From positions 1 to 64,000 of the forward strand of contig JAACTC010000005.1 of assembly GCA_009993635.1 (NCBI GenBank): DNA of 64,000 nucleotides, written 5' to 3'. Positions within the stretch are counted from its first letter, which is position 1. The number at the start of each line of letters is the position of its first letter. Both the position numbers and the translations under genes were made by a program. The DNA is from Erythrobacter sp. (lineage in GTDB: Bacteria; Pseudomonadota; Alphaproteobacteria; Sphingomonadales; Sphingomonadaceae). Of the stretch, positions 1-9,511 are shown piece by piece. The notes below the pieces were generated by a model. It was not told the origin of the DNA and did no database searches. It saw nothing but the letters and a program-made list of their open reading frames with translations.

Positions 1-104
1 CCCGCGCATTCGGCCGCTTCCGCCACCGGAGCCCACAGGACACCGAATGCAGTGCACAGCGTGACGAGCTGCAGCAAAAGGGAACGGGCGAAGAGCCGGG
101 TCAT
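1..104 (-). CDS. N-terminus of a secreted protein, cut by the window edge
   Basis: Only the first 34 codons are visible, read on the minus strand from an ATG at 104. They encode a typical signal peptide: MTRLFARS, then a hydrophobic stretch, then an Ala-rich cleavage region (PVAEAAEC). The protein is therefore probably exported to the periplasm. It lies downstream of the CDF and DUF3703 genes in the same orientation, with an 83-base gap, so a role in metal handling is a reasonable guess. Too little is visible to name a family. Confidence 0.5.
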   Translation of the reverse strand, partial: MTRLFARSLLLQLVTLCTAFGVLWAPVAEAAECA

Positions 105-187
105 GGCGTGTCCGGTAGCATTGGCGGCTTGGCTGCGAAAGAACTATCTCGCGAAACGGAATGTGATTTCATAACAAAACCATCGAT

Positions 188-571
188 CTACTTCGAGCCA
201 CGAACATCTTGAGCTGTCGATTGACCAAGCACCCGACTGATCTCCGGTTCTATTTCCATCCGAGCGAATGCGCTTACATTCGAACGACCACTGTTTCCTA
301 TTGGAAGTCTCCCCGTGATGTTGCCTATGGGGGCAAGGGAAAGTCGGAATATCTGACCGTGAACTTCGCGCCAATCACGCGTTCTCCACGCAAGCTCCAG
401 CATACGCCAATGCGAGACGCAGTGCGGTCCCAAGCGGTCCTGAGCAACTACGTGGGCCCGTTCGAGATGGTGCCAGGCTTCCTCGAAATTCTGCTCGTCC
501 GAAGCCTCTGCTGCGCGTCGGTATTCTTCTGCGAGAAATGCATCCCTGCTGGGAGTGGTATTGCTATCCAT
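188..571 (-). CDS. DUF3703 domain protein of a metal-resistance cluster
   Basis: A protein of 127 residues matching the DUF3703 family as I recall it: an N-terminal helical part with a WHHLERAHVVAQ segment, then HWRMLELAWRTRDWREV, then a Gly/Pro-rich segment ending GRLPIGNSGRSNVSAF. The family has no established biochemical function but is often found beside heavy-metal efflux genes, as here. The ATG at 571 is chosen because it overlaps the end of the upstream CDF gene by eight bases, which suggests translational coupling; a longer frame reaches 610. It is probably transcribed from the MerR-controlled promoter near 1225. Confidence 0.75.
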   Translation of the reverse strand: MDSNTTPSRDAFLAEEYRRAAEASDEQNFEEAWHHLERAHVVAQDRLGPHCVSHWRMLELAWRTRDWREVHGQIFRLSLAPIGNITGRLPIGNSGRSNVSAFARMEIEPEISRVLGQSTAQDVRGSK

Positions 572-1184
572 GGGACAGCTCCCGGCGTGCCTGGCCGAAC
601 ACCTCCGCACTGCCCCACAGGGCTAGTCCGGCCATGATCGAGGCGACGAGCAAGTCGGGCCACGCGTTGCCCGTTCCAAACACGCCGAGGGCGGCGCCGA
701 GAACCGCAACGTTTCCGATCGCGTCGTTGCGCGAGCAAATCCATACCGATCGCATGTTCGCATCGCCTTCGCGGAACTGGAAGAGCATGAGCGCGACGAT
801 CACGTTCGTCGCCAAAGCCAGCGTGCCGACCACTCCCATTGTCTGGGGCTCCGGGTCCGAACCAGCGACGAGGCCGTAGATCGCGTAACCGATTACCCAC
901 ACGCCGAAAGCGAGCATGGTCGCGGCCTTCACTAGAGCGGCCTTGGCGCGCCATGAGAGTGCCAGACCTGCAACGCCAAGACTGATCGCGTAGTTCGCGG
1001 CATCCCCGAAGAAATCAAGCGCATCGGCCTGGAGCGAACGGGAATCAGCAGCGACACCAGCCACCATCTCCACCACGAACATGACTGCATTAACGATGAG
1101 TGCGATCCACAGGACGCGGCGCCAGCGCGGATCGTCGTGCGCGGCGGTGTCAGGCTCCGGTGTCTGGCAGCAGGACTTCGCCAT
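564..1184 (-). CDS. Cation diffusion facilitator family transporter (Zn/Cd/Co-type efflux)
   Basis: A 206-residue inner-membrane protein with about six hydrophobic segments. The DALDFFGDAANY segment in TM2 and the NDAIGNVAV segment in TM5 sit where CDF transporters carry their metal-binding Asp/His residues. CDF proteins export divalent metals in exchange for protons. The N-terminus carries a CysCys pair (MAKSCCQ) that could bind metal. It is short for the family and seems to lack the usual cytoplasmic C-terminal domain. The ATG at 1184 follows a good GGAGAG ribosome site. It is divergent from a MerR regulator with a shared operator, so metal induction is likely. Which metal is not decided by the sequence. 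Confidence 0.85.
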   Translation of the reverse strand: MAKSCCQTPEPDTAAHDDPRWRRVLWIALIVNAVMFVVEMVAGVAADSRSLQADALDFFGDAANYAISLGVAGLALSWRAKAALVKAATMLAFGVWVIGYAIYGLVAGSDPEPQTMGVVGTLALATNVIVALMLFQFREGDANMRSVWICSRNDAIGNVAVLGAALGVFGTGNAWPDLLVASIMAGLALWGSAEVFGQARRELSHG

Positions 1185-1217
1185 GCCACTCTCCTTGCAA
1201 CGTTCGAGTCGCAAGAA

Positions 1218-1250
1218 CATATGCACCTTGTAGCAACTACAAGGTCAAGC
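1218..1250. promoter_or_regulatory. MerR operator and divergent promoters
   Basis: A perfect inverted repeat, ACCTTGTAG-CAA-CTACAAGGT, lies at 1225-1245. On the minus strand it sits between TTGACC (-35 like, 1242-1247) and CATATG or the overlapping ATATGT (-10 like), with a spacer of about 19-20 bp. Over-long spacers with a central palindrome are the hallmark of MerR-activated promoters. The palindromic CATATG at 1218-1223 could also serve as -10 of the plus-strand regulator promoter, with TTGCAA at 1195-1200 and a 17 bp spacer. The palindrome is seen directly; promoter roles are inferred. Confidence 0.8.
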
Positions 1251-1251
1251 G

Positions 1252-1659
1252 ATGCGTATCGGGGAACTGGCGAAAGCCACCGGCACAAAGGCGGAGACGA
1301 TCCGCTATTATGAACGCGAAGGCATATTGCCGGCTGCGGATCGAACTGACAGCAATTACCGCGACTATTCGGACAATCACTTGGCAGCGCTGACATTCGT
1401 TCGCCGCGCCCGCCAGCTCGGCTTCAGCATGGCGCAGGTGCGCGAACTGCTCGATTTATCGGATCGCGCCGACAAGCCATGTCAAGAAGTCGATGAACTT
1501 GTTCATGAGCAGCTGGAGGAGGTGGAACAGAGGATCGTAGACCTCTTGTCACTCCGGGATGAGCTGCGGCTTCTGCTGCGCTCCTGCCAAGCGAACCGTA
1601 TCGATGAGTGCCGTATCGTTGGGAGCCTCGCGCGTCCCCTCGGGCGCGTCACTCGATAA
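1252..1659 (+). CDS. MerR-family metal-responsive transcriptional regulator
   Basis: A 135-residue regulator with the N-terminal MerR winged helix-turn-helix (MRIGELAKATGTKAETIRYY, then EREGI), a long dimerisation helix, and a C-terminal metal-binding loop. Cysteines at 77, 112 and 120 match the three-cysteine arrangement of the CadR/PbrR/ZntR group, so Cd(II), Pb(II) or Zn(II) are the likely inducers rather than Cu(I) or Hg(II). Such regulators hold the promoter distorted until metal binding. The target is the palindrome just upstream, which controls the divergent CDF-DUF3703 genes and probably the regulator itself. Confidence 0.9.
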   Translation: MRIGELAKATGTKAETIRYYEREGILPAADRTDSNYRDYSDNHLAALTFVRRARQLGFSMAQVRELLDLSDRADKPCQEVDELVHEQLEEVEQRIVDLLSLRDELRLLLRSCQANRIDECRIVGSLARPLGRVTR

Positions 1660-1722
1660 CAATAAAGCGCTATTGCTTGGCAAGGATGAGAAGGTTCGCT
1701 GCACGCTTGCCAGAGCATGGGT

Positions 1723-2160
1723 TCAGAGTGACTTCGACTGGGCCTTTCGTAATAGATCGATCTGATCGATGAGCACCCGGGGGTTGTAACCTTCCGATAG
1801 ATAGGTCTCGCAGCTCTTGCGAGCGAGCTTTACCTCTCGATCGTCGCGCGTGCGTTTCGAATGTAGGCGCGTTTTGGATCGGTGGTGAACTGCACCGCGA
1901 ACGGTGTCGCCTTTCTCCTCGAGCTTTGCCGACAAGGTAGCTCGACGAGACAGATACGCATCCAGCCGCTGCACCCTTGCGGTAACACGTTTCAACGCGC
2001 CTCTCTTCGCCCGCGAAATGAATGGCTGGTCGGCGTGGATCGCCGACGCGATCACCTCCTGGGGAGGAAGGGCGCGATCATCCAGCCGCACCCGCAGGCG
2101 CGCGAAGAATTCTTCGGTTCCAGCCTCTTTCATCTTGATTCGCATAATCGCATAACGCAT
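1723..2160 (-). CDS. Small protein with a probable helix-turn-helix, divergent from the methyltransferase
   Basis: Up to 145 residues, basic, not assigned to a named family. Residues about 33-60 (PPQEVIASAIHADQPFISRA) read like a helix-turn-helix: a leading helix, a turn, then a QPFISRAKRG recognition helix. The rest is charged and likely helical. It lies head-to-head with the cytosine methyltransferase, the usual place for a controller or autorepressor gene of a restriction-modification locus, so I infer regulation of that locus. The start is uncertain: ATGs at 2160, 2145 and 2133 are all possible and none has a clear ribosome site. The first leaves only 14 bases to the methyltransferase ATG. 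Confidence 0.55.
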   Translation of the reverse strand: MRYAIMRIKMKEAGTEEFFARLRVRLDDRALPPQEVIASAIHADQPFISRAKRGALKRVTARVQRLDAYLSRRATLSAKLEEKGDTVRGAVHHRSKTRLHSKRTRDDREVKLARKSCETYLSEGYNPRVLIDQIDLLRKAQSKSL

Positions 2161-2182
2161 AACGCATATGCAATATGCGATT
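2141..2182. repeat. CGCATA repeat cluster between divergent genes, probable operator
   Basis: Four direct copies of CGCATA at 2141, 2149, 2156 and 2163, spaced seven or eight bases, are followed by one inverted copy (TATGCG) at 2174. AATCGCATA (2146-2154) and TATGCGATT form the outer inverted pair. The cluster covers the start codons of both divergent genes. It has the look of a binding array for the neighbouring helix-turn-helix protein; that role is inferred. Confidence 0.6.
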
Positions 2183-3149
2183 TGTCGATCTCTTCTCGGG
2201 TGCGGGCCTTTTCAGCGGCGGCTTCGTGCAGCAGGGCTTCAGTCCGATCCTGGCTGTTGACCTGTCCAGCGATGCAATCGCCAGCTATCAGCGGAACATC
2301 GCTCCTGTCGGTCGCTGCGGCTCGATATCGGACCTCGAACGATTGCCCGAATGCGAAGTGCTAATCGCAGGTCCGCCGTGTCAGGGCTTCTCAACGCTCG
2401 GTCGCCGCGATCCCCTCGACGAGCGGAATGCGCTCGCGTTCGAGGTCGTGCGGCTGGCCGCCACCAATCCGCCAGACGTCGTGGTCATCGAGAACGTCCC
2501 CCCGTTCCTACGATCCGCTGCTTGGTCGCAGATCCGCAATGGTCTGATCGCCCTGGGTTACGATGTGGTGCCTTGGGAACTTGATGCGTCGGACTATGGC
2601 ACGCCTCAATACCGGCGGCGGTCTTTCACCATCGCTAGCCGTGTAGGCATGCCAGAAATTCCGAAGCCCGCCAGCGGGATGGTTCCCGCCCGAACCGTTC
2701 TGTCGCGCCCGGTGGACCCGGATGATGCCTTGCATCGATGGCCGGCGCCAACGCCGCTAGCCAAAGGGCGTATGAGACTCATCCCCACCGGCGGAGACAA
2801 ACGCGACCTGATGCGAGCCGCGCCCGATCTGTGCCCGCCTTCCTGGAGGCAGGTGGGTTGCCAGGCTACGGACGTCTGGGGCCGTATCGATCCGGACAAG
2901 CCCGCCAATACCCTGCGATGCGCATTCCAGAACCCGTCCAAGGGGCGCTACATCCATCCCACAGCGAACAGAGTGATCTCCCTACGGGAAGGCGCGCGTC
3001 TGCAGGGCGTGCCGGACGCTTGGCACTTCGTGGGGCGCAACTACCCCGTCGCACGCCAGATCGGGAACGGTGTTCCCGTTCCTCTGGCAAGGGCAGTGGC
3101 GGGTTCCATCCGTCAGCTATTGGCAAACCATGTCGAAGCTGCCGCGTGA
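2175..3149 (+). CDS. DNA (cytosine-5)-methyltransferase
   Basis: A 324-residue C5 methyltransferase transferring a methyl group from S-adenosylmethionine to cytosine in DNA. All key motifs are present in order: motif I DLFSGAGLFSGGF at the extreme N-terminus, motif IV GPPCQGFSTLGRRD with the catalytic Cys at residue 69, motif VI ENVPP, motif VIII YGTPQYRRRSF, and motif X QIGNGVPVPLARAV near the end. The start at 2175 fits because motif I begins at residue 4. No Shine-Dalgarno is visible, so translation may be leaderless. It probably protects host DNA from the downstream GHKL-nuclease protein. The recognition sequence cannot be read from this. Confidence 0.93.
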   Translation: MRFVDLFSGAGLFSGGFVQQGFSPILAVDLSSDAIASYQRNIAPVGRCGSISDLERLPECEVLIAGPPCQGFSTLGRRDPLDERNALAFEVVRLAATNPPDVVVIENVPPFLRSAAWSQIRNGLIALGYDVVPWELDASDYGTPQYRRRSFTIASRVGMPEIPKPASGMVPARTVLSRPVDPDDALHRWPAPTPLAKGRMRLIPTGGDKRDLMRAAPDLCPPSWRQVGCQATDVWGRIDPDKPANTLRCAFQNPSKGRYIHPTANRVISLREGARLQGVPDAWHFVGRNYPVARQIGNGVPVPLARAVAGSIRQLLANHVEAAA

Positions 3150-3273
3150 TTTCCCGATGGCACGCAGGCGCTGCTAAGGTGGCTACCTATGCGACTGCCC
3201 TCCATTAAACCGCAACTTGAACGCCATTAATCGACGTGATGCCAAGTCAGGGCGAAACGGGCATAACAGAAGG

Positions 3274-5403
3274 ATGAACAGTCCCGATACGATTCGCCAG
3301 CCGGACCGACCCGCCGAGTTCCCACTCAAGATCCAAGGCGGAATGCTCGAGGCGCTCGGGATCAATATGTATGCCACGATTGGCAAATGCCTGGTGGAGT
3401 TCGTCGCCAATGCTCATGACGCAGAAGCGAACCGCGTCGACATCTCAATTCCCTTCGATGCGATTGAGGAAGCGCGATGGAAGGCGCGCGAGACTGCCAA
3501 GGCTCAAGTCGAAGCGGGCGACCGCGACCCATTCACGATACTGCTCACGCCACTGCCCGAAGAGCTAAAGATCACGATAAGCGACGATGGGCACGGCATG
3601 TCTCCGGAGCAGATCGAGGAGAGGTTCCTCCCGGTCAACCGGAAGCGTCGTGAGGACGCGCAAGGCGAAGAGACCGTGCTTACCTCGGAGACAGGCAAGC
3701 GACATGTCATGGGGCGTAAGGGCCTCGGCAAGCTTGCCGGCTTCGGCGCGGCGACGAAGGTCGTGATCGAAACCAAGAGAGAAGGGCAGGACTTCGCTAC
3801 CGTCTTCACGCTCGACGACGCGGTGATCCGCGAAGCTGAAGATATCGGGGAAGTCCGTATCCCGGCCGAATACATCGAAGGACGTCCGACCCGGCAGAAG
3901 GGAACGACAGTCACGCTATACGGCCTCAAGTCCGATGCTGTGCGCTACGCCTTCGAGACCATCGCGAAGCAGATACGCAGTGCGTTCTTTGGCATTCGCC
4001 CCGAAGAAATGGCGATCCACATCAACGATACGCTGATAGAACAACCCAATCCCGACTACGTCTTCGTCTACCCGCAAGGTGCATCGGAAGAAGACCTGGC
4101 GGATGATGAGGTCCAGATCGGCGAACTGGCCACCATGCCCGTCCGCTACATGGTGGGCTTTCGCAAACAGAACCTACCCACCAGTCAGCGGGGCGCGCGG
4201 ATCTATTGCAACAAGCGCCTCGCCGCAGGTCCCTCGCTCTTCGGACTGCCGACAGGCATGCACAACTTCCACAGTCAGAGCTACATGGAATGCGTCGTCC
4301 AAGCCGATGAACTCGACCGGCATGGCATAGACCTCATCAACACCAATCGCAGCCAACTGAGGGAAGACAACGAGATCGTCGCGGCGCTGCTGGAGTTCGT
4401 CGAAGAGAGGATGCGTCGCGCGCTCGCTGCACATGCCAAATGGAAGGAAGAGGTGGTCGACGAGGAGATCACCAAGGCCCCGAAGGCCCGTTTCGCAATG
4501 CAGATGACCAGCACGCTCGAAGGTCCTGCAAAGGCATCGGCACGCCGGTTGCTTCGTCGGCTCGCGATCGAGCACGGAGCTGACTCACGCGAGTTCGAGG
4601 AACTCGCGCCGCTGATCGTCCAGACGATGAACACCGGCGAAGTTCTCATCCGGCTTAGCCATCTCGAGACCAACGTGGAGACCATCCGGCAGGTCGCGTT
4701 AAACCTCATCGAACTGGCGGACATAGAGAAAAGCGACGCCCTGAAAATCTACCGCGGTCGCCGAGATGCCATCAACGCGTTGCTCGCCTTGGTTCGTAAG
4801 GGAGAGCACGAGTTCTGGAAGAAGAAGGGCATCGAGAAGGAACTGCACCAACTCCTGAAGGAAGAGCCGTGGCTGATCAGGCCAGAATTCAATCGCTACC
4901 TGACCAGCGACGAGCGCTTGACCAACGTGTCGACCATGCTCGCCGAGCATCTCGGTGTCGACACGCAAGCGGCGCTCGATGATCCCAAGCGTCCGGACCT
5001 CGTCTTCCTGATGAGCGATACTGGCCAGCCCCACCGCATCATCGTGGTGGAACTCAAGTCGACCAGCCTTCCTCTGAAGCACGAGCATCTCGTCCAGTTG
5101 AAAGGCTACATGGCCAAGGTCGAGACCTACTGCCGGACCGAACTCAACCGACGGGTTACCGTCCACGGCTATCTGATCGGTTCGATGCCAGACGAGAAAA
5201 CCGTCAACGATGACGAACGTCTGCTGCTGAGCGAGATCGAGAAGCAGGGGCTCAATTCCGAATGGTCCGTCATGGGGACCCGTTCGATGCTCGAATACGC
5301 ACAAGTCGCGAACGGCCATGCGATTGCGGCGATGGAGAAGGATCTCGCCGACCTGGATCAGGACGCCGAGCGCGAATCGGATCACGAGAACGTCGCAGCC
5401 TGA
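3274..5403 (+). CDS. GHKL (MORC/MutL-like) ATPase fused to a PD-(D/E)XK-type nuclease domain
   Basis: About 709 residues. The N-terminal third is a GHKL ATPase: N-box EFVANAHDAEA (residues 42-52), G1 box SDDGHGM (about 103-109) and G2 box GRKGLGKLAGFG (about 147-158). A helical middle follows. The C-terminal part has PDLVFL (Asp575) and VVELKS (Glu593, Lys595), the D...ExK pattern of PD-(D/E)XK nucleases. Such MutL/MORC-like ATPases are known from prokaryotic restriction-modification loci (Iyer, Abhiman and Aravind), so this is probably the restriction component paired with the upstream methyltransferase. It may relate to the BbrUII/HgiDII group of restriction enzymes, which I cannot confirm. 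An in-frame TTG at 3217 is an alternative start; neither start has a good ribosome site. Confidence 0.8.
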   Translation: MNSPDTIRQPDRPAEFPLKIQGGMLEALGINMYATIGKCLVEFVANAHDAEANRVDISIPFDAIEEARWKARETAKAQVEAGDRDPFTILLTPLPEELKITISDDGHGMSPEQIEERFLPVNRKRREDAQGEETVLTSETGKRHVMGRKGLGKLAGFGAATKVVIETKREGQDFATVFTLDDAVIREAEDIGEVRIPAEYIEGRPTRQKGTTVTLYGLKSDAVRYAFETIAKQIRSAFFGIRPEEMAIHINDTLIEQPNPDYVFVYPQGASEEDLADDEVQIGELATMPVRYMVGFRKQNLPTSQRGARIYCNKRLAAGPSLFGLPTGMHNFHSQSYMECVVQADELDRHGIDLINTNRSQLREDNEIVAALLEFVEERMRRALAAHAKWKEEVVDEEITKAPKARFAMQMTSTLEGPAKASARRLLRRLAIEHGADSREFEELAPLIVQTMNTGEVLIRLSHLETNVETIRQVALNLIELADIEKSDALKIYRGRRDAINALLALVRKGEHEFWKKKGIEKELHQLLKEEPWLIRPEFNRYLTSDERLTNVSTMLAEHLGVDTQAALDDPKRPDLVFLMSDTGQPHRIIVVELKSTSLPLKHEHLVQLKGYMAKVETYCRTELNRRVTVHGYLIGSMPDEKTVNDDERLLLSEIEKQGLNSEWSVMGTRSMLEYAQVANGHAIAAMEKDLADLDQDAERESDHENVAA

Positions 5404-5413
5404 ATCCGGTAAG

Positions 5414-5596
5414 ATGACGGTGCGGATGCCCATGAATGCCGACTGGTTACTGGAAGCGCGGATGCCGACATTTTTCGGCGCCCTTGCCTTGGCTGCTTCC
5501 CGAGCATTTCGCGGTAGCGGCGGGATCGCCCGCAAGTCTTCAATGGTCGAACGTCAATCGATGGTGAAGTTCGGGTCGCTACCGGCTGCGCGATGA
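5414..5596 (+). CDS. Possible 60-residue ORF between the GHKL and TniQ genes
   Basis: An open frame from ATG 5414 whose stop overlaps the tniQ-like start codon as ATGA (5593-5596). The product is basic, with a short hydrophobic Ala-rich patch (FFGALALAASRAF) and no recognisable domain. It fills the only gap in the methyltransferase-GHKL-TniQ row, and the overlap would allow translational coupling, which are the reasons to list it. No clear ribosome site is seen and coding by chance is quite possible. Confidence 0.3.
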   Translation: MTVRMPMNADWLLEARMPTFFGALALAASRAFRGSGGIARKSSMVERQSMVKFGSLPAAR

Positions 5597-6990
5597 GCGA
5601 GAAGAGCCATCTCGCACACGCCGCGTCACCTTTTTTTCCACCCATCCTTGCGGACGAGCTTCTGCTTTCGGCTGTCGCGCGCTTCTCATCCCTCTCCCGA
5701 ATGGACAGCCATTCGACGAACGAAGCGCTTTTCGGGCGACGGAAGGTCCGCTTTGCCTACGATCTTCCCATAGGGGTCGCGAGCCTGGCCAAGGCGATTG
5801 GCGCCTCCGATCCAGCGCAGTTGATCCGCGAACACACCCTGTATCCCTTCTTCGTAGCACTGTTCGAGCGGCGGCAAAGGGACGAGGTGCTGCGTGCGAT
5901 GCTCTCCGAGCTTAAAGTGCATAACAAGGTTCTTGGTCGCCTGTCCCATGTTCCACGCCCGGAGTTTCTCCGCTTTTGCCCAGATTGCGATCTCGCAAAC
6001 GAGACGAATGCCGGCATGCGCTACTGGCAACGCCGACACCAGCTGCCCACGAGCCTGGTCTGCGTCGAACATTGCATTCCGCTCCGGGCCTCCTCGGTGA
6101 CCACTTCGTCGGGCGTCCAGCGATACGAACTCGTTTCGGATCCCCAAGTCCAGGGACCGCCCCTGCTGCCAGAGATGGGTGGACCTTCCCTCGAAAGATT
6201 TCTCCATCTGGCCTCCATGGGTTATGACCTGTTGAATTGGCAGAAAGAGGCTCGTCCCGCGCTCGATCCATCTCTCCGGACCATGGCTCTCGAAACGGGA
6301 TATCGCAGAGGTCCTGCGGACGATGACATCGAGAACATTCGTCTGGCAGACGAATTCCGGCGAGATAGTCCGGACCTCATCCGGTTATGGCCGTGGTTGA
6401 ACAAGGCTTTTGATACCGCAGGCCGGTTAGGATGGATCCGGATGCATACGACCAGGGACGCGCCGCCATCGCGCGTGACATTCACCTATGCGGTGCTGCG
6501 ATCGTATCTTCAGCTTAAGAAGACTAACTTCTTCTTTCCCACCGAGACACGAGATTGGACGGGCATTCACGTCGACCTCAGTGCGGTGGAGAGGCGGAGG
6601 AGGATGGAGAGCCTGACGGAAAAGGAGCTTGAGAAGCTGGTGTCCACAACAATCGATCAGATCCTTCTCGAGCAGCCCCCGGTTCGAGCGCTCCCGACCG
6701 AAATCTTTCGCCGTTCGCCAGCGATTGCTCATGCTTGGCGCATCGATCTGGGAGGACAATTTCGCTCATTGCTGACCGACCGTGCCGAAAGTCTAGAAAG
6801 TTTCCATCTCCGCGTTGTCCGCTATGCTCTGACTGAGGCGTCGAGAAACGACAGAACTCTATCCGACAGCGACCTGCTGCATCTATTGGGCAAGCGAACC
6901 ATAGACGAGGTCCGAAAGTTGCGGGCGGTCGTAGAAAGAGATGGCTTCGGCACAGATAAGCCCTCTTTCGAAGCCCGATCGCTCGAATGA
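5593..6990 (+). CDS. TniQ/TnsD-family protein
   Basis: A 465-residue protein with the TniQ domain. The N-terminal PILADELLLSAVARFS and LFG segments are typical. They are followed by a CCCH zinc finger: Cys129-P-D-Cys132, then the YWQRRHQLP signature, then Cys157-x2-His160. TniQ/TnsD proteins select target sites for Tn7-, Tn5053- and CRISPR-associated transposons by binding DNA and recruiting TnsC/TniB. Here no tnsA, tnsB or tnsC is nearby; the neighbours are a methyltransferase and a GHKL nuclease. It is either a transposon remnant or has been recruited to the defence-like block. Transposon-end-like repeats begin 10 bases after its stop. Family assignment is firm, role is open. Confidence 0.85.
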   Translation: MSEKSHLAHAASPFFPPILADELLLSAVARFSSLSRMDSHSTNEALFGRRKVRFAYDLPIGVASLAKAIGASDPAQLIREHTLYPFFVALFERRQRDEVLRAMLSELKVHNKVLGRLSHVPRPEFLRFCPDCDLANETNAGMRYWQRRHQLPTSLVCVEHCIPLRASSVTTSSGVQRYELVSDPQVQGPPLLPEMGGPSLERFLHLASMGYDLLNWQKEARPALDPSLRTMALETGYRRGPADDDIENIRLADEFRRDSPDLIRLWPWLNKAFDTAGRLGWIRMHTTRDAPPSRVTFTYAVLRSYLQLKKTNFFFPTETRDWTGIHVDLSAVERRRRMESLTEKELEKLVSTTIDQILLEQPPVRALPTEIFRRSPAIAHAWRIDLGGQFRSLLTDRAESLESFHLRVVRYALTEASRNDRTLSDSDLLHLLGKRTIDEVRKLRAVVERDGFGTDKPSFEARSLE

Positions 6991-7000
6991 CGCATGTGAG

Positions 7001-7120
7001 TGTCAGAACCTTATTTCCATAAAGTCGGTGATACTAAGCGATAGGTGTCAAAACCTAATTACCGCAAGATACGCGGTTCCCGCGCGCTTGGTGTCCAAAC
7101 CAACTTCGATTTTACCAACC
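7001..7120. repeat. Three TGTC-starting direct repeats, about 45 bp period, like a Tn7/Tn5053-type transposon end
   Basis: Copies start at 7001 (TGTCAGAACCTTATTTCC), 7046 (TGTCAAAACCTAATTACC) and 7092 (TGTCCAAACCAACTTC), spaced 45 and 46 bases. A shared GTGTCnnAACC core and an A/T-rich tail are clear. Ends of TnsB/TniA-type elements begin with TGTC and carry tandem binding sites of about 20 bp. The orientation would make 7001 a left terminus with the element extending right, leaving tniQ outside; no partner end was found. Confidence 0.6.
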
Positions 7121-7153
7121 GGAGCCTAACCATTTATCGCTATTGCGGGAGCG

Positions 7154-9511
7154 GTGAGGGAAGATGATGCAACCGATCTCCGCCAGGCGCAGGACGCACT
7201 CCCGCTAACGGCGATACTGGGCCTGCGCGATGGCGAAGGGCTCGACTGGCCGCGCCTGTGGCTGTTGCAGCACCGCGAGCTTGCACGGCAGGCCCCGCTG
7301 CGGATTGCCTGCCATCTGGGCGGCGGTGTGCTCGCGCTGCTTCTGTTTTTCAACGCCTTGCCGCTCGCCGTGATGGTCAGCTGGTTCGCCTGGCTGGTGG
7401 GCAGCGTCTATATCTACACCCAGCGCGATGCCGACATTCTGAAGATCGAAAAGCGCGCGCTTTCCTCCAGCGAAACGCGATCGCACCTGGTGGGTAGCAT
7501 CATGCTGGGCGTGGGCTGGGCCAGCCTCATGCCGATCCTCCATTATTTCGGTGACGCGGGTTCGGTGCTGCGGGGCTGGGGGCTGATCGCCGCGATCTCG
7601 TTCGGCGCGGTGATCCTGATGGGCGCCGTCCCGCTGAGCGCGATCGCATTCTTTGCGCTGGTCAGCCTGGCTTCCGCCGCCACGTTCCATGTCGCGGACG
7701 ATCCCGGGATGATCGCGGTCGTCGGCTTCTTCGCCATCTTCGCGATTGGCGGTGTATGGATGCGGGCGCGCAACTTCCTGCGCTTTTCCATCGTCGAAAG
7801 TTCGATGCATGAAAAATCGGACACCGTCTCTCTGCTGCTGCGCGAGTTCGAGGAGAACGAGGCCGACTGGTTGTGGGAGATCGACCAGAACCGGCTGATC
7901 CGCTCTGCCTCGCCACGCTTCGCTTTTGCGCTGGGCGCGTCGGCCCGCGAGCTGGAAGGCCGTTCCTTCCTCGAACTGATCTCGGGCGAGCAGTGGGAGG
8001 AGGGAACGTCAGCCCATCTGCTTCGCGAGCTGACCGATCACATCAAGGCACGGGCGAACTTTTCCAACCTTCTGGTGCAGGTGCAGATCGCGGGCGAAGA
8101 ACGCTGGTGGGAGCTTTCGGGCACGCCGCTGCTGGGCGAAAAGGGCGAATACCTGGGCTATCGCGGAGTCGGCTCCGATGTAACCGCGCAGCGCAATTCG
8201 TCGGAGAAGATCGCCTATCTTGCACGCTACGATACGCTGACCAAACTGCCCAACCGGCTGATGCTGAACGAGGTGCTGGGCGATGCGATGAACGAAGCGC
8301 GCAGGTCGAAACGCCGCTGCGCCTTCATCATGATCGATCTGGATCGCTTCAAGGCGGTGAACGATTCTCTCGGTCACCAGATCGGCGACCGGTTGCTGGA
8401 AGAAGTGTCGCGCCGGCTGGGCAAGATCGCGACCGAGAACGAGTTGTGCGGTCGGCTGGGTGGCGACGAATTCGGCATCGTGCTGCACGATGCGAGCGAG
8501 CATGGCCGGGTCGATGAGGTTGCGCGAAAGGTGATCGAGCATCTTTCGCGGCCCTACGAGGTGGACGATCACACGCTGTTCGTCGGCGCCAGTGCCGGAT
8601 CGGCACTCGCCCCGCGCGATGGCAAGACGGTGGAAGACCTGATGCGCAACGCCGATCTTGCGCTCTACCGCGCCAAGGACGACGGTCGCGGGGTTCACTG
8701 CGCCTACGAACCCTCGCTCCATGCCCATGCGGAGGAACGGCGCCAGCTGGAATTCTCCCTGCGGCAGGCGCTGGAGAACGACGAGCTGCTGCTCAATTTC
8801 CAGCCGGTGGTCGATGCCAACAGCGAACAGGTCGTCAGCTTCGAGGCACTGGTTCGCTGGCAAAGCGCCGACCATGGCTTCGTCAGCCCCGGCAAGTTCA
8901 TTCCCGTGGCCGAAGATACCCGCCTGATCGTGCCGATCGGCACCTGGGTGATGCAGCGCGCGTGCATGGAAGCCACCGCTTGGCCGGAAAGCGTGAAGGT
9001 CAACGTCAACGTCTCGCCCGAACAGCTGGTGGAGCCCGATTTCGTCGATACGGTGGTGGCCGCCCTGTCGACCAGCGGGCTCGCCCCGCAGCGGCTCGAA
9101 ATCGAAGTGACGGAGAGCATCTTCCTGAACGATGCCGAGGTGGCCCGGGTTGCGCTGGGCAAGGTCATGGCGCTCGGCTGTCAGGTGGCGCTCGACGATT
9201 TCGGCACCGGCTATTCCTCGCTCGGCTATCTGCGAAAGCTGAAATTCTCGACCATCAAGGTCGATCGCAGCTTCGTGCAGGGCGCGGCGCAGGGCAGCAG
9301 CGAAAGCCTTGCGATCGTGCGCGCGGTGGTGGCGATGGCGCAGAGCCTTGAGATGAAGACCACCGCAGAAGGCGTCGAAACGGAAGACGAGGCCAGGCTG
9401 GTCCGCACTATGGGCTGCGACCGCATTCAGGGGTTCTATTTCGGTCGCCCGATGACCAGCGAAGACGCGCAAGGCCTGTTTCGGGCCTCGCGAGGCCAGC
9501 TGCGCGCGTAA
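7154..9511 (+). CDS. Membrane PAS-GGDEF-EAL cyclic-di-GMP enzyme
   Basis: A 785-residue signalling protein. The N-terminal part has about five or six hydrophobic segments (residues 55-205). Then come a PAS domain (around 235-350), a GGDEF domain with an intact GGDEF motif at 436-440, and an EAL domain with EAL at 564-566 and a canonical DDFGTGYSS loop. Both active sites look intact, so it could make and break cyclic-di-GMP; which activity dominates cannot be told. The GTG start at 7154 is the best available but has a poorly spaced ribosome site, and the transposon-like repeats end only about 34 bases upstream. A paralogue with the same architecture lies at 45898-48378. Confidence 0.9.
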   Translation: MREDDATDLRQAQDALPLTAILGLRDGEGLDWPRLWLLQHRELARQAPLRIACHLGGGVLALLLFFNALPLAVMVSWFAWLVGSVYIYTQRDADILKIEKRALSSSETRSHLVGSIMLGVGWASLMPILHYFGDAGSVLRGWGLIAAISFGAVILMGAVPLSAIAFFALVSLASAATFHVADDPGMIAVVGFFAIFAIGGVWMRARNFLRFSIVESSMHEKSDTVSLLLREFEENEADWLWEIDQNRLIRSASPRFAFALGASARELEGRSFLELISGEQWEEGTSAHLLRELTDHIKARANFSNLLVQVQIAGEERWWELSGTPLLGEKGEYLGYRGVGSDVTAQRNSSEKIAYLARYDTLTKLPNRLMLNEVLGDAMNEARRSKRRCAFIMIDLDRFKAVNDSLGHQIGDRLLEEVSRRLGKIATENELCGRLGGDEFGIVLHDASEHGRVDEVARKVIEHLSRPYEVDDHTLFVGASAGSALAPRDGKTVEDLMRNADLALYRAKDDGRGVHCAYEPSLHAHAEERRQLEFSLRQALENDELLLNFQPVVDANSEQVVSFEALVRWQSADHGFVSPGKFIPVAEDTRLIVPIGTWVMQRACMEATAWPESVKVNVNVSPEQLVEPDFVDTVVAALSTSGLAPQRLEIEVTESIFLNDAEVARVALGKVMALGCQVALDDFGTGYSSLGYLRKLKFSTIKVDRSFVQGAAQGSSESLAIVRAVVAMAQSLEMKTTAEGVETEDEARLVRTMGCDRIQGFYFGRPMTSEDAQGLFRASRGQLRA

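What the first reader, a model, noticed from the sequence alone, without database searches (positions are those of the whole stretch)
2175..6990. Methyltransferase, GHKL-nuclease and TniQ in one row: an unusual defence-like module
A C5 methyltransferase and a GHKL ATPase fused to a PD-(D/E)XK-type domain recall the MORC/MutL-like restriction-modification systems. The addition of a TniQ/TnsD DNA-binding protein, normally a transposon target selector, downstream with nearly continuous spacing is not a combination I know. TniQ might direct the nuclease to specific DNA or merely be cargo.
Basis: partly seen in the sequence, partly recalled or inferred. Interest (0 to 1): 0.8.

Follow-up and report, generated by a model that had tools for sequence, protein, structure and literature searches.

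The report
Restriction cargo inside a Tn7-like transposon
The three genes are real but are not one defence system: the methyltransferase and nuclease form an ordinary restriction-modification pair carried as cargo by a Tn7-like jumping element inserted beside the glmS gene, and the TniQ gene belongs to the jumping element's far end.

Summary
The C5 methyltransferase, GHKL/PD-(D/E)XK nuclease and TniQ genes exist where stated, but belong to two different things. MTase plus nuclease form a restriction-modification pair with a MORC-type ATPase fold, nearest to the BbrUII/HgiDII family; 78 of 80 related loci examined show no TniQ in the fetched flanks. The TniQ gene ends 10 bp before the first end repeat of a Tn7-like transposon. 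The same genome holds TnsA-B-C-D at the other end of that element, 25 bp behind glmS, on another contig. Both ends carry the same putative transposase sites in inverted order and an exact 5-bp target duplication (ACCGG). A genome of another genus has the whole 36.3-kb element on one contig, also with a perfect duplication. A third species carries the restriction pair at 96% DNA identity on a transposon whose TnsABCD, ends and distal TniQ are unrelated (27-36% protein identity). Synonymous divergence agrees: TniQ 0.23, Tns genes 0.07-0.16, restriction genes 0.64-0.69. So TniQ is chassis and the restriction pair is cargo. TniQ lacks the TnsD domain of the glmS-side selector; most likely it is a second target selector, without CRISPR, target unknown. 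The parts are of known kinds; the distal TniQ and the cargo shared by two chassis are the interesting points.

The parts
188..610 (-). DUF3703 protein, metal-resistance cargo
   Evidence: PF12487 E 1e-38
564..1226 (-). CDF cation-efflux protein, metal-resistance cargo
   Evidence: PF01545 E 5e-12; same block in G645 and G385
1252..1659 (+). MerR-type regulator, metal-resistance cargo
   Evidence: PF13411 E 4e-21
1723..2160 (-). divergent small gene of the restriction unit, possibly an HTH (controller-like) regulator
   Evidence: no hit above cut-off itself; the G626 homologue has HTH hits below cut-off, best E 0.0019; found in 6 of 80 nuclease loci. Function inferred
2175..3149 (+). C5 cytosine DNA methyltransferase (restriction-modification cargo)
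   Evidence: PF00145 E 3e-51; MTase_II/DruM models
3274..5403 (+). GHKL ATPase plus C-terminal PD-(D/E)XK nuclease, MORC-like, BbrUII/HgiDII-like restriction enzyme (cargo).
   Evidence: NF050001 E 9e-55, 186.5 bits against cut-off 550; conserved motifs; MORC3 fold Z 23.8
5376..5377 (.). cargo/chassis junction: 96.25% DNA identity to the G385 element over 1-5376, no blastn match after it
5593..6990 (+). TniQ2, distal TniQ of the Tn7-like element, intact, no TnsD domain hit
   Evidence: PF06527 E 3e-15, no PF15978; 91% identical copy in G645; dN 0.046, dS 0.225
6991..7117 (.). distal transposon end: three spaced putative TnsB sites (7001, 7046, 7092), tip at 7117
7118..7122 (.). 5-bp target-site duplication ACCGG; the other copy is at G000 contig C7 9464-9468 (L006)
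   Evidence: read; same arrangement in G645 (GGCAG) and G385 (CCTTG)
7154..9511 (+). GGDEF-EAL host gene, in most near relatives the direct neighbour of glmS; marks the outer flank

Best explanation
Positions 1-7117 of the window are the distal part of a Tn7-like transposon inserted at attTn7, between glmS and the GGDEF-EAL gene. The chassis is: end - TnsD - TnsC - TnsB - TnsA on the glmS side (contig C7), and TniQ2 - end on the far side (the window). Everything between is cargo: metal resistance and the restriction-modification pair. The pair works as a type II system: the C5 MTase protects host sites, and the ATP-driven MORC-like nuclease cuts unprotected DNA (inferred from family). TnsD directed this insertion to glmS (inferred from its TnsD domain and the insertion point). 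TniQ2 is probably a second TnsC-recruiting target selector for another kind of target, such as mobile DNA (inferred; target and partner unknown).
For: Own genome contig C7 holds TnsA (PF08722), TnsB (PF09299), TnsC (TniB/AAA) and TnsD (PF06527 plus PF15978), then four end sites and the glmS 3' end 25 bp away. The pattern TGTCNNAACCNNNTT occurs 7 times in the own genome; 6 lie in the two end clusters, against 1 hit for the reversed control pattern. Of 30 genomes searched (own included), 15 have the GGDEF match; in 9 of these 15 it lies 83-141 bp from the glmS match. G645 holds the entire element, 36,337 bp, on one contig with duplication GGCAG. TniQ2 goes with the chassis: the cargo block is 96.25% identical to the G385 element up to position 5376, after which TniQ and end sites, and on the other side TnsABCD, are unrelated. 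dS between G000 and G645: TnsA/B/C 0.07-0.08, TnsD 0.16, TniQ2 0.23, against RE 0.64, MTase 0.69; between G000 and G385: RE 0.15, MTase 0.07. dN/dS for TniQ2 is 0.21. In plasmids, TniQ2 matches 159 records, none covering 80% of the query; the best-ranked ones are annotated as TnsD/TniQ transposition proteins (best 40 seen).
Against: The two halves lie on different contigs in the window's own genome, so their linkage there is inferred from G645, from the normal glmS-GGDEF order and from the matching duplication. The element tips are TAG/TGG, not the usual TGT. TniQ2 dS (0.177-0.287) does not overlap that of TnsA/B/C (upper limit 0.110), only that of TnsD. In G385 a TniQ also follows the nuclease directly (39 nt), so the adjacency recurs with an unrelated TniQ. 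No transposition or restriction activity was tested.
Confidence: 0.93

Rival explanations
1. MTase, nuclease and TniQ are one defence (or targeting) system in which TniQ guides the nuclease, or the nuclease/MTase serves as target-selecting partner of TniQ, as TnsF does in Tn6022.
For: Same order and strand in G000, G645 and G385, with gaps of 189 nt in the window and 39 nt in G385. Of the 14 closest loci (40% identity or more, L091-L104) 2 have a TniQ. A short TniQ next to a gene operonized with it is how TnsF was found (PMC10293859, section 11 read).
Against: No TniQ in the fetched flanks of 78 of 80 loci nor next to the pair in G626. Nearly identical pairs sit beside TniQs only 27% identical. 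dS of TniQ2 and of the pair differ about threefold.
Confidence: 0.03
2. TniQ2 is a left-over of another, tandemly inserted transposon and no longer has a role.
For: Loci with more than one TniQ/TnsD were put down to co-occurring Tn7s or split genes in one passage of PMC10293859 (section 11).
Against: The end pattern gives only two end clusters in the own genome, both of one motif, and G645 and G000 have different, exact duplications around the whole unit including TniQ2. TniQ2 is intact with dN/dS 0.21. A distal TniQ is also present in the unrelated G385 chassis.
Confidence: 0.2
3. TniQ2 is the glmS selector and the TnsD-like protein next to TnsC has another target.
For: Both are about 460 aa in G000, and all three elements studied sit at glmS.
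Against: Only the glmS-side protein has the TnsD domain PF15978 (89 bits in G000, 157 in G385; no hit in the distal TniQ of either), and it matches the Tn7 TnsD chain over 7-297 (E 6e-28) against 15-161 for TniQ2 (E 2e-12).
Confidence: 0.06

Closest known systems
Tn7 and Tn7-like transposons with TnsABC and a glmS-targeting TnsD
   Same: TnsA, B, C, D genes; insertion 24-25 bp behind glmS; 5-bp duplication; closely spaced sites at the att side and spaced sites at the far side
   Different: Tips of G000 and G645 are not TGT/ACA; a second TniQ sits alone at the distal end; no TnsE was recognised among the proteins scanned, which were not all of the element
Dual TniQ-TnsD Tn7-like elements (PMC10293859, section 11 and passages read; PMC11406308, section 2.6.1 and passages read)
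   Same: One selector with a TnsD domain, one TniQ without it
   Different: Their survey took TniQ/TnsD genes in the vicinity of tnsC; here the second TniQ is separated from tnsABC by the cargo, and no CRISPR array was found
BbrUII/HgiDII family restriction-modification (NF050001; M.HgiDII recognises GTCGAC per PMC5867850, passages read)
   Same: C5 MTase beside a GHKL-type restriction enzyme; E 9e-55
   Different: 186.5 bits against a cut-off of 550, so a distant relative; own recognition site unknown
MORC/paraMORC restriction systems (PMC2292703, passages read)
   Same: GHKL plus S5-type fold, fused RE-fold nuclease as described there for paraMORC3, C5 MTase; a Vsr-like gene in the flanks of 25 of 80 related loci
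   Different: No Vsr-like hit beside the window's pair; a helicase was not searched for; paraMORC3 membership was not tested by a tree

Membership tests
Tn7-like transposon | TnsA, TnsB, TnsC, TnsD genes in one row | tested here: met
   L006 3148-9275: PF08722 44.5 bits, PF09299 23.8, PF05621 31, PF15978 89.2 and PF06527 76.1, these over cut-off; the TnsA C-terminal model PF08721 was just below it, 21.4 against 23.4
Tn7-like transposon | insertion at attTn7 with 5-bp target duplication | tested here: met
   glmS stop to tip 25 bp in G000, 24 in G645, 25 in G385; duplications ACCGG, GGCAG, CCTTG
Tn7-like transposon | inverted arrays of transposase sites at both ends | tested here: met
   GGTnnnGACA sites at 17, 37, 57, 91 bp from the glmS-side tip and 17, 63, 108 from the distal tip in G000 and G645; CTTTC[CG] at 21, 40, 57, 84 and 21, 74, 123 in G385; binding itself not tested
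Tn7-like transposon | TGT/ACA terminal sequence | tested here: not met
   tips TAG and TGG in G000 and G645, TGA and TGT in G385; [quoted passage not shown]
CRISPR-associated transposon | CRISPR array and cas genes in the element | tested here: not met
   no array in E645, E385, both G000 halves or the window; no cas family among the element proteins scanned by Pfam, which were not all of them. Against: TniQ2 hits PADLOC's TniQ models named for I-F and I-B systems (E 4e-18, 7e-9), which are TniQ-family models
BbrUII/HgiDII restriction enzyme (NF050001) | score over the NCBIfam cut-off | tested here: not met
   186.5 bits against 550
BbrUII/HgiDII restriction enzyme (NF050001) | cuts GTCGAC, protected by its C5 MTase | not testable with these tools
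   needs methylation sequencing or digestion
MORC/paraMORC-type ATPase | GHKL motifs plus S5-type fold | tested here: met
   invariant E42, N46, D104, G106-M109, G147, K149, G150, G152, K153; MORC3 Z 23.8, rmsd 3.1, 299 aligned
Defence system with TniQ component | TniQ linked to the pair across unrelated hosts | tested here: not met
   TniQ in 2 of 80 loci, both transposon contexts
Dual TniQ-TnsD element | a TnsD-domain selector plus a TniQ without it in one element | tested here: met
   both genes in one contiguous element in G645; PF15978 only on the glmS-side protein of G000 and of G385; the G645 proteins were not scanned themselves but are 91% identical to those of G000

The most novel reading that the evidence does not exclude
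The distal TniQ is a second, CRISPR-free targeting pathway that two unrelated Tn7-like chassis keep at the end opposite TnsABCD, with an undiscovered partner or a new kind of DNA-binding C-terminal part; and attTn7 is a place where whole cargoes pass between unrelated Tn7-like chassis, restriction genes included.
Probability: 0.4. Interest if true: 0.6.

Novelty: new member of a known kind. Interest (0 to 1): 0.38.

Why it matters
It shows that a striking gene trio is the seam between a transposon's chassis and its cargo, a trap for defence-system prediction by gene neighbourhood. It also gives a clean natural experiment: two Tn7-like chassis with unrelated TnsABCD, ends and distal TniQ carry much of the same cargo at the same attachment site, so cargo exchange can be followed gene by gene. 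PMC8649781 (passages read) states that the share of recombination in cargo diversity was not addressed there. The distal TniQ without a CRISPR array makes a second targeting route directly testable.

Tried and rejected
One defence system: rejected because of the co-occurrence count and the dS discordance. CRISPR-associated transposon: no array. A Vsr gene near the pair: no hit in the first 12 kb of the window with a one-sequence Vsr profile. Structure of TniQ2: only 3 aligned sequences, mean pLDDT 38.5, so not interpreted and not searched. Other insertions between glmS and the GGDEF gene (G388 4.7 kb, G394 23 kb, G400 34 kb): tblastn with the Tns proteins found nothing in them (G388 only); G388 looked like ordinary genes when its ORFs were read. 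Ten of 278 genomes have two TniQ matches: G000, G385, G645, and seven others. Of these seven, G457, G529 and G420 have TnsB/TniA- or TniB-like neighbours beside the TniQs and were not worked out further; of G513 one of two loci was looked at; G445, G474 and G598 were not looked at. The PD-(D/E)XK part was barely covered by the fold matches (rows span 19-398); it rests on sequence motifs and weak HSDR_N_2/SduA_C hits below cut-off. Wider searches with few hits: nuclease in 1 of 385 class genomes (own only), TniQ2 in 2 of 385, TnsD in 2 of 316 order genomes. The nuclease alignment A2 holds the window and 35 of the 49 long relatives listed; near-duplicates and weak ones were left out by me. Of the 80 loci, 59 have at least 3 kb on both sides of the nuclease frame, so a few TniQs could lie beyond short contigs. 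First TniQ profile used some wrong-strand pieces; rebuilt. One search covered the E385 distal end on one strand only and its junction print was misplaced; redone. Paper searches with no hit: Tn7/Erythrobacter/glmS, Tn7-like/cargo exchange, Tn7-like/tniQ/opposite end; one off-topic hit for TniQ/methyltransferase/restriction endonuclease/defense island (listing only). These cover only the held open-licence library, and I claim no absence in print beyond them. The tniQ-cas operon at the opposite end in I-F3 transposons is recalled, not from a call.
Full report
Observation. The three genes are present as described: a C5 methyltransferase, a GHKL protein with a nuclease-like C terminus, and a TniQ protein. 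The nuclease start is more likely 3274 than 3217. A divergent small gene (1723-2160) and a metal-resistance block (DUF3703, CDF, MerR) lie upstream.

The restriction pair. The GHKL protein matches the BbrUII/HgiDII restriction model at E 9e-55 but scores 186.5 bits against a cut-off of 550. In 36 aligned sequences most GHKL motif residues are invariant and D575, E593 and K595 of the presumed nuclease site are nearly so. Its model (mean pLDDT 83.5) matches MORC3 at Z 23.8 over residues 19-391. The genome-contig scan found 127 relatives and kept the best 80. All 80 were examined for neighbours within the fetched flanks, up to 8 kb: a C5 MTase in 64 of 80, a Vsr-like gene in 25 of 80, the divergent small gene in 6 of 80, a TniQ in 2 of 80. 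The two are among the 14 closest loci. Rhizobium and Shinella plasmids carry Vsr, nuclease and MTase, with no TniQ annotated in the stretches shown and none found by profile in those stretches. In the family, 4 of 278 genomes have the nuclease; in G626 no TniQ was found in the 19.9-kb stretch around it. In the genus it is in 2 of 10 genomes.

The transposon. Downstream of TniQ lie three repeats. A pattern search of the own genome found 7 matches, 3 here and 3 on contig C7, with 1 for the reversed control. On C7 the repeats lie between a TniQ/TnsD protein and the 3' end of glmS, with TnsA, TnsB and TnsC upstream. Of 30 genomes searched, own included, 15 have the GGDEF-EAL gene at the threshold used. 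In 9 of those the match lies 83-141 bp from the glmS match; in 4 (G385, G388, G394, G400) 4.7 to 34 kb lie between; in G390 and the own genome the two are on separate contigs. So the start of C7 and the start of the window most likely face each other across an assembly gap, inside one insertion. The flanks carry the exact duplication ACCGG, and the tip is 25 bp behind the glmS stop.

The proof by relatives. G645, of another genus of the family, has the complete 36,337-bp element on one contig: glmS, four sites, TnsD, C, B, A, cargo, restriction pair, TniQ2, three sites, GGDEF gene, with duplication GGCAG. In both G645 and G000 the sites lie at 17, 37, 57 and 91 bp from the glmS-side tip and at 17, 63 and 108 bp from the distal tip. 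The review PMC11406308 (section 2.6.1 read) describes close sites at the att side and spaced sites at the other as common in Tn7-like elements.

The chassis/cargo seam. G385 carries a different Tn7-like element (31,108 bp, duplication CCTTG) with its own end motif, CTTTC[CG], at 21, 40, 57 and 84 bp from the glmS-side tip and 21, 74 and 123 from the distal tip. Its TnsA, B, C, D and distal TniQ are 34, 32, 30, 36 and 27% identical to those of the window's genome. Yet the window's positions 1-5376 are 96.25% identical to it, and 8 blastn segments of it, about 20 kb between 7,727 and 29,862, align to the G645 element at 67-89% identity, with none in the chassis parts. The identity to the window stops 27 bp before the nuclease stop codon. 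In G385 the foreign TniQ follows the nuclease after 39 nt.

Divergence test. Between G000 and G645, dS is 0.07-0.08 for TnsA, B and C, 0.156 for TnsD and 0.225 (0.177-0.287) for TniQ2. It is 0.643 (0.549-0.768) for the nuclease, 0.693 (0.554-0.872) for the MTase, 0.659 for the divergent gene, and 0.864 for a 386-codon part of the host glmS. Between G000 and G385 the nuclease is at 0.154 and the MTase at 0.070. So the pair appears to have been exchanged separately from TniQ2, and the element to have moved between genera. TniQ2 is more diverged than TnsABC, without overlap of the intervals, and overlaps only TnsD, so it may have had some history of its own. Other cargo is mosaic too (CDF 0.131, MerR near saturation).

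Role of TniQ2. In G000 and G385 only the glmS-side selector has the TnsD domain, and in G000 it is closer to the Tn7 TnsD of solved structures than TniQ2 is. TniQ2 keeps its TniQ domain and shows dN/dS 0.21. A close copy of TniQ2 (91%) was found only in G645 among 278 family genomes; three more places in G000, G385 and G592 are 28-34% matches, as is a second place in G645 at 39%. Elements with a TnsD and a second TniQ are known: 998 dual loci near tnsC in PMC10293859 (section 11 read). In the CRISPR-associated cases described in PMC11406308 the second TniQ serves another target pathway (passages). I therefore infer a second target selector; its target is unknown and the structure attempt failed.

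Known ground. Restriction-modification is the commonest defence cargo of Tn7-like transposons (947 elements in PMC8649781, passages read). GHKL-nuclease restriction systems were described in PMC2292703 (passages read). The find is thus a new member of known kinds. What remains of interest is the lone distal TniQ without an array, and much of one cargo on two unrelated chassis at the same site.

Noticed in passing
L006 1671-2909 (own genome contig C7): A 412-aa protein between TnsA and the cargo, on the opposite strand, with no Pfam hit but weak tblastn similarity (21-26%) to the TniA-like stretches of three other genomes. It may be a second, degenerate transposase-like chassis gene.
   Followed up: partly
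L034/L035 (G385) against L057/L058 (G645): Two Tn7-like elements with unrelated machinery share about 20 kb in 8 blastn segments at attTn7, including the restriction pair; the G645 cargo includes copper and RND efflux genes.
   Followed up: partly
L036-L040: The glmS-GGDEF gap also holds 34, 23 and 4.7 kb of other DNA in G400, G394 and G388, with no Tns relatives detected by tblastn; the site looks like an insertion hot spot.
   Followed up: partly
L101 11568-16412: Phenylobacterium sp. J426: the same type of restriction pair next to a resolvase-TniA-TniB-TniQ row, another TniQ-type carrier.
   Followed up: partly
L057 8046-9086 (-): Cargo protein of G645 with YscW-like, MliC and META domains in one chain.
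   Followed up: no
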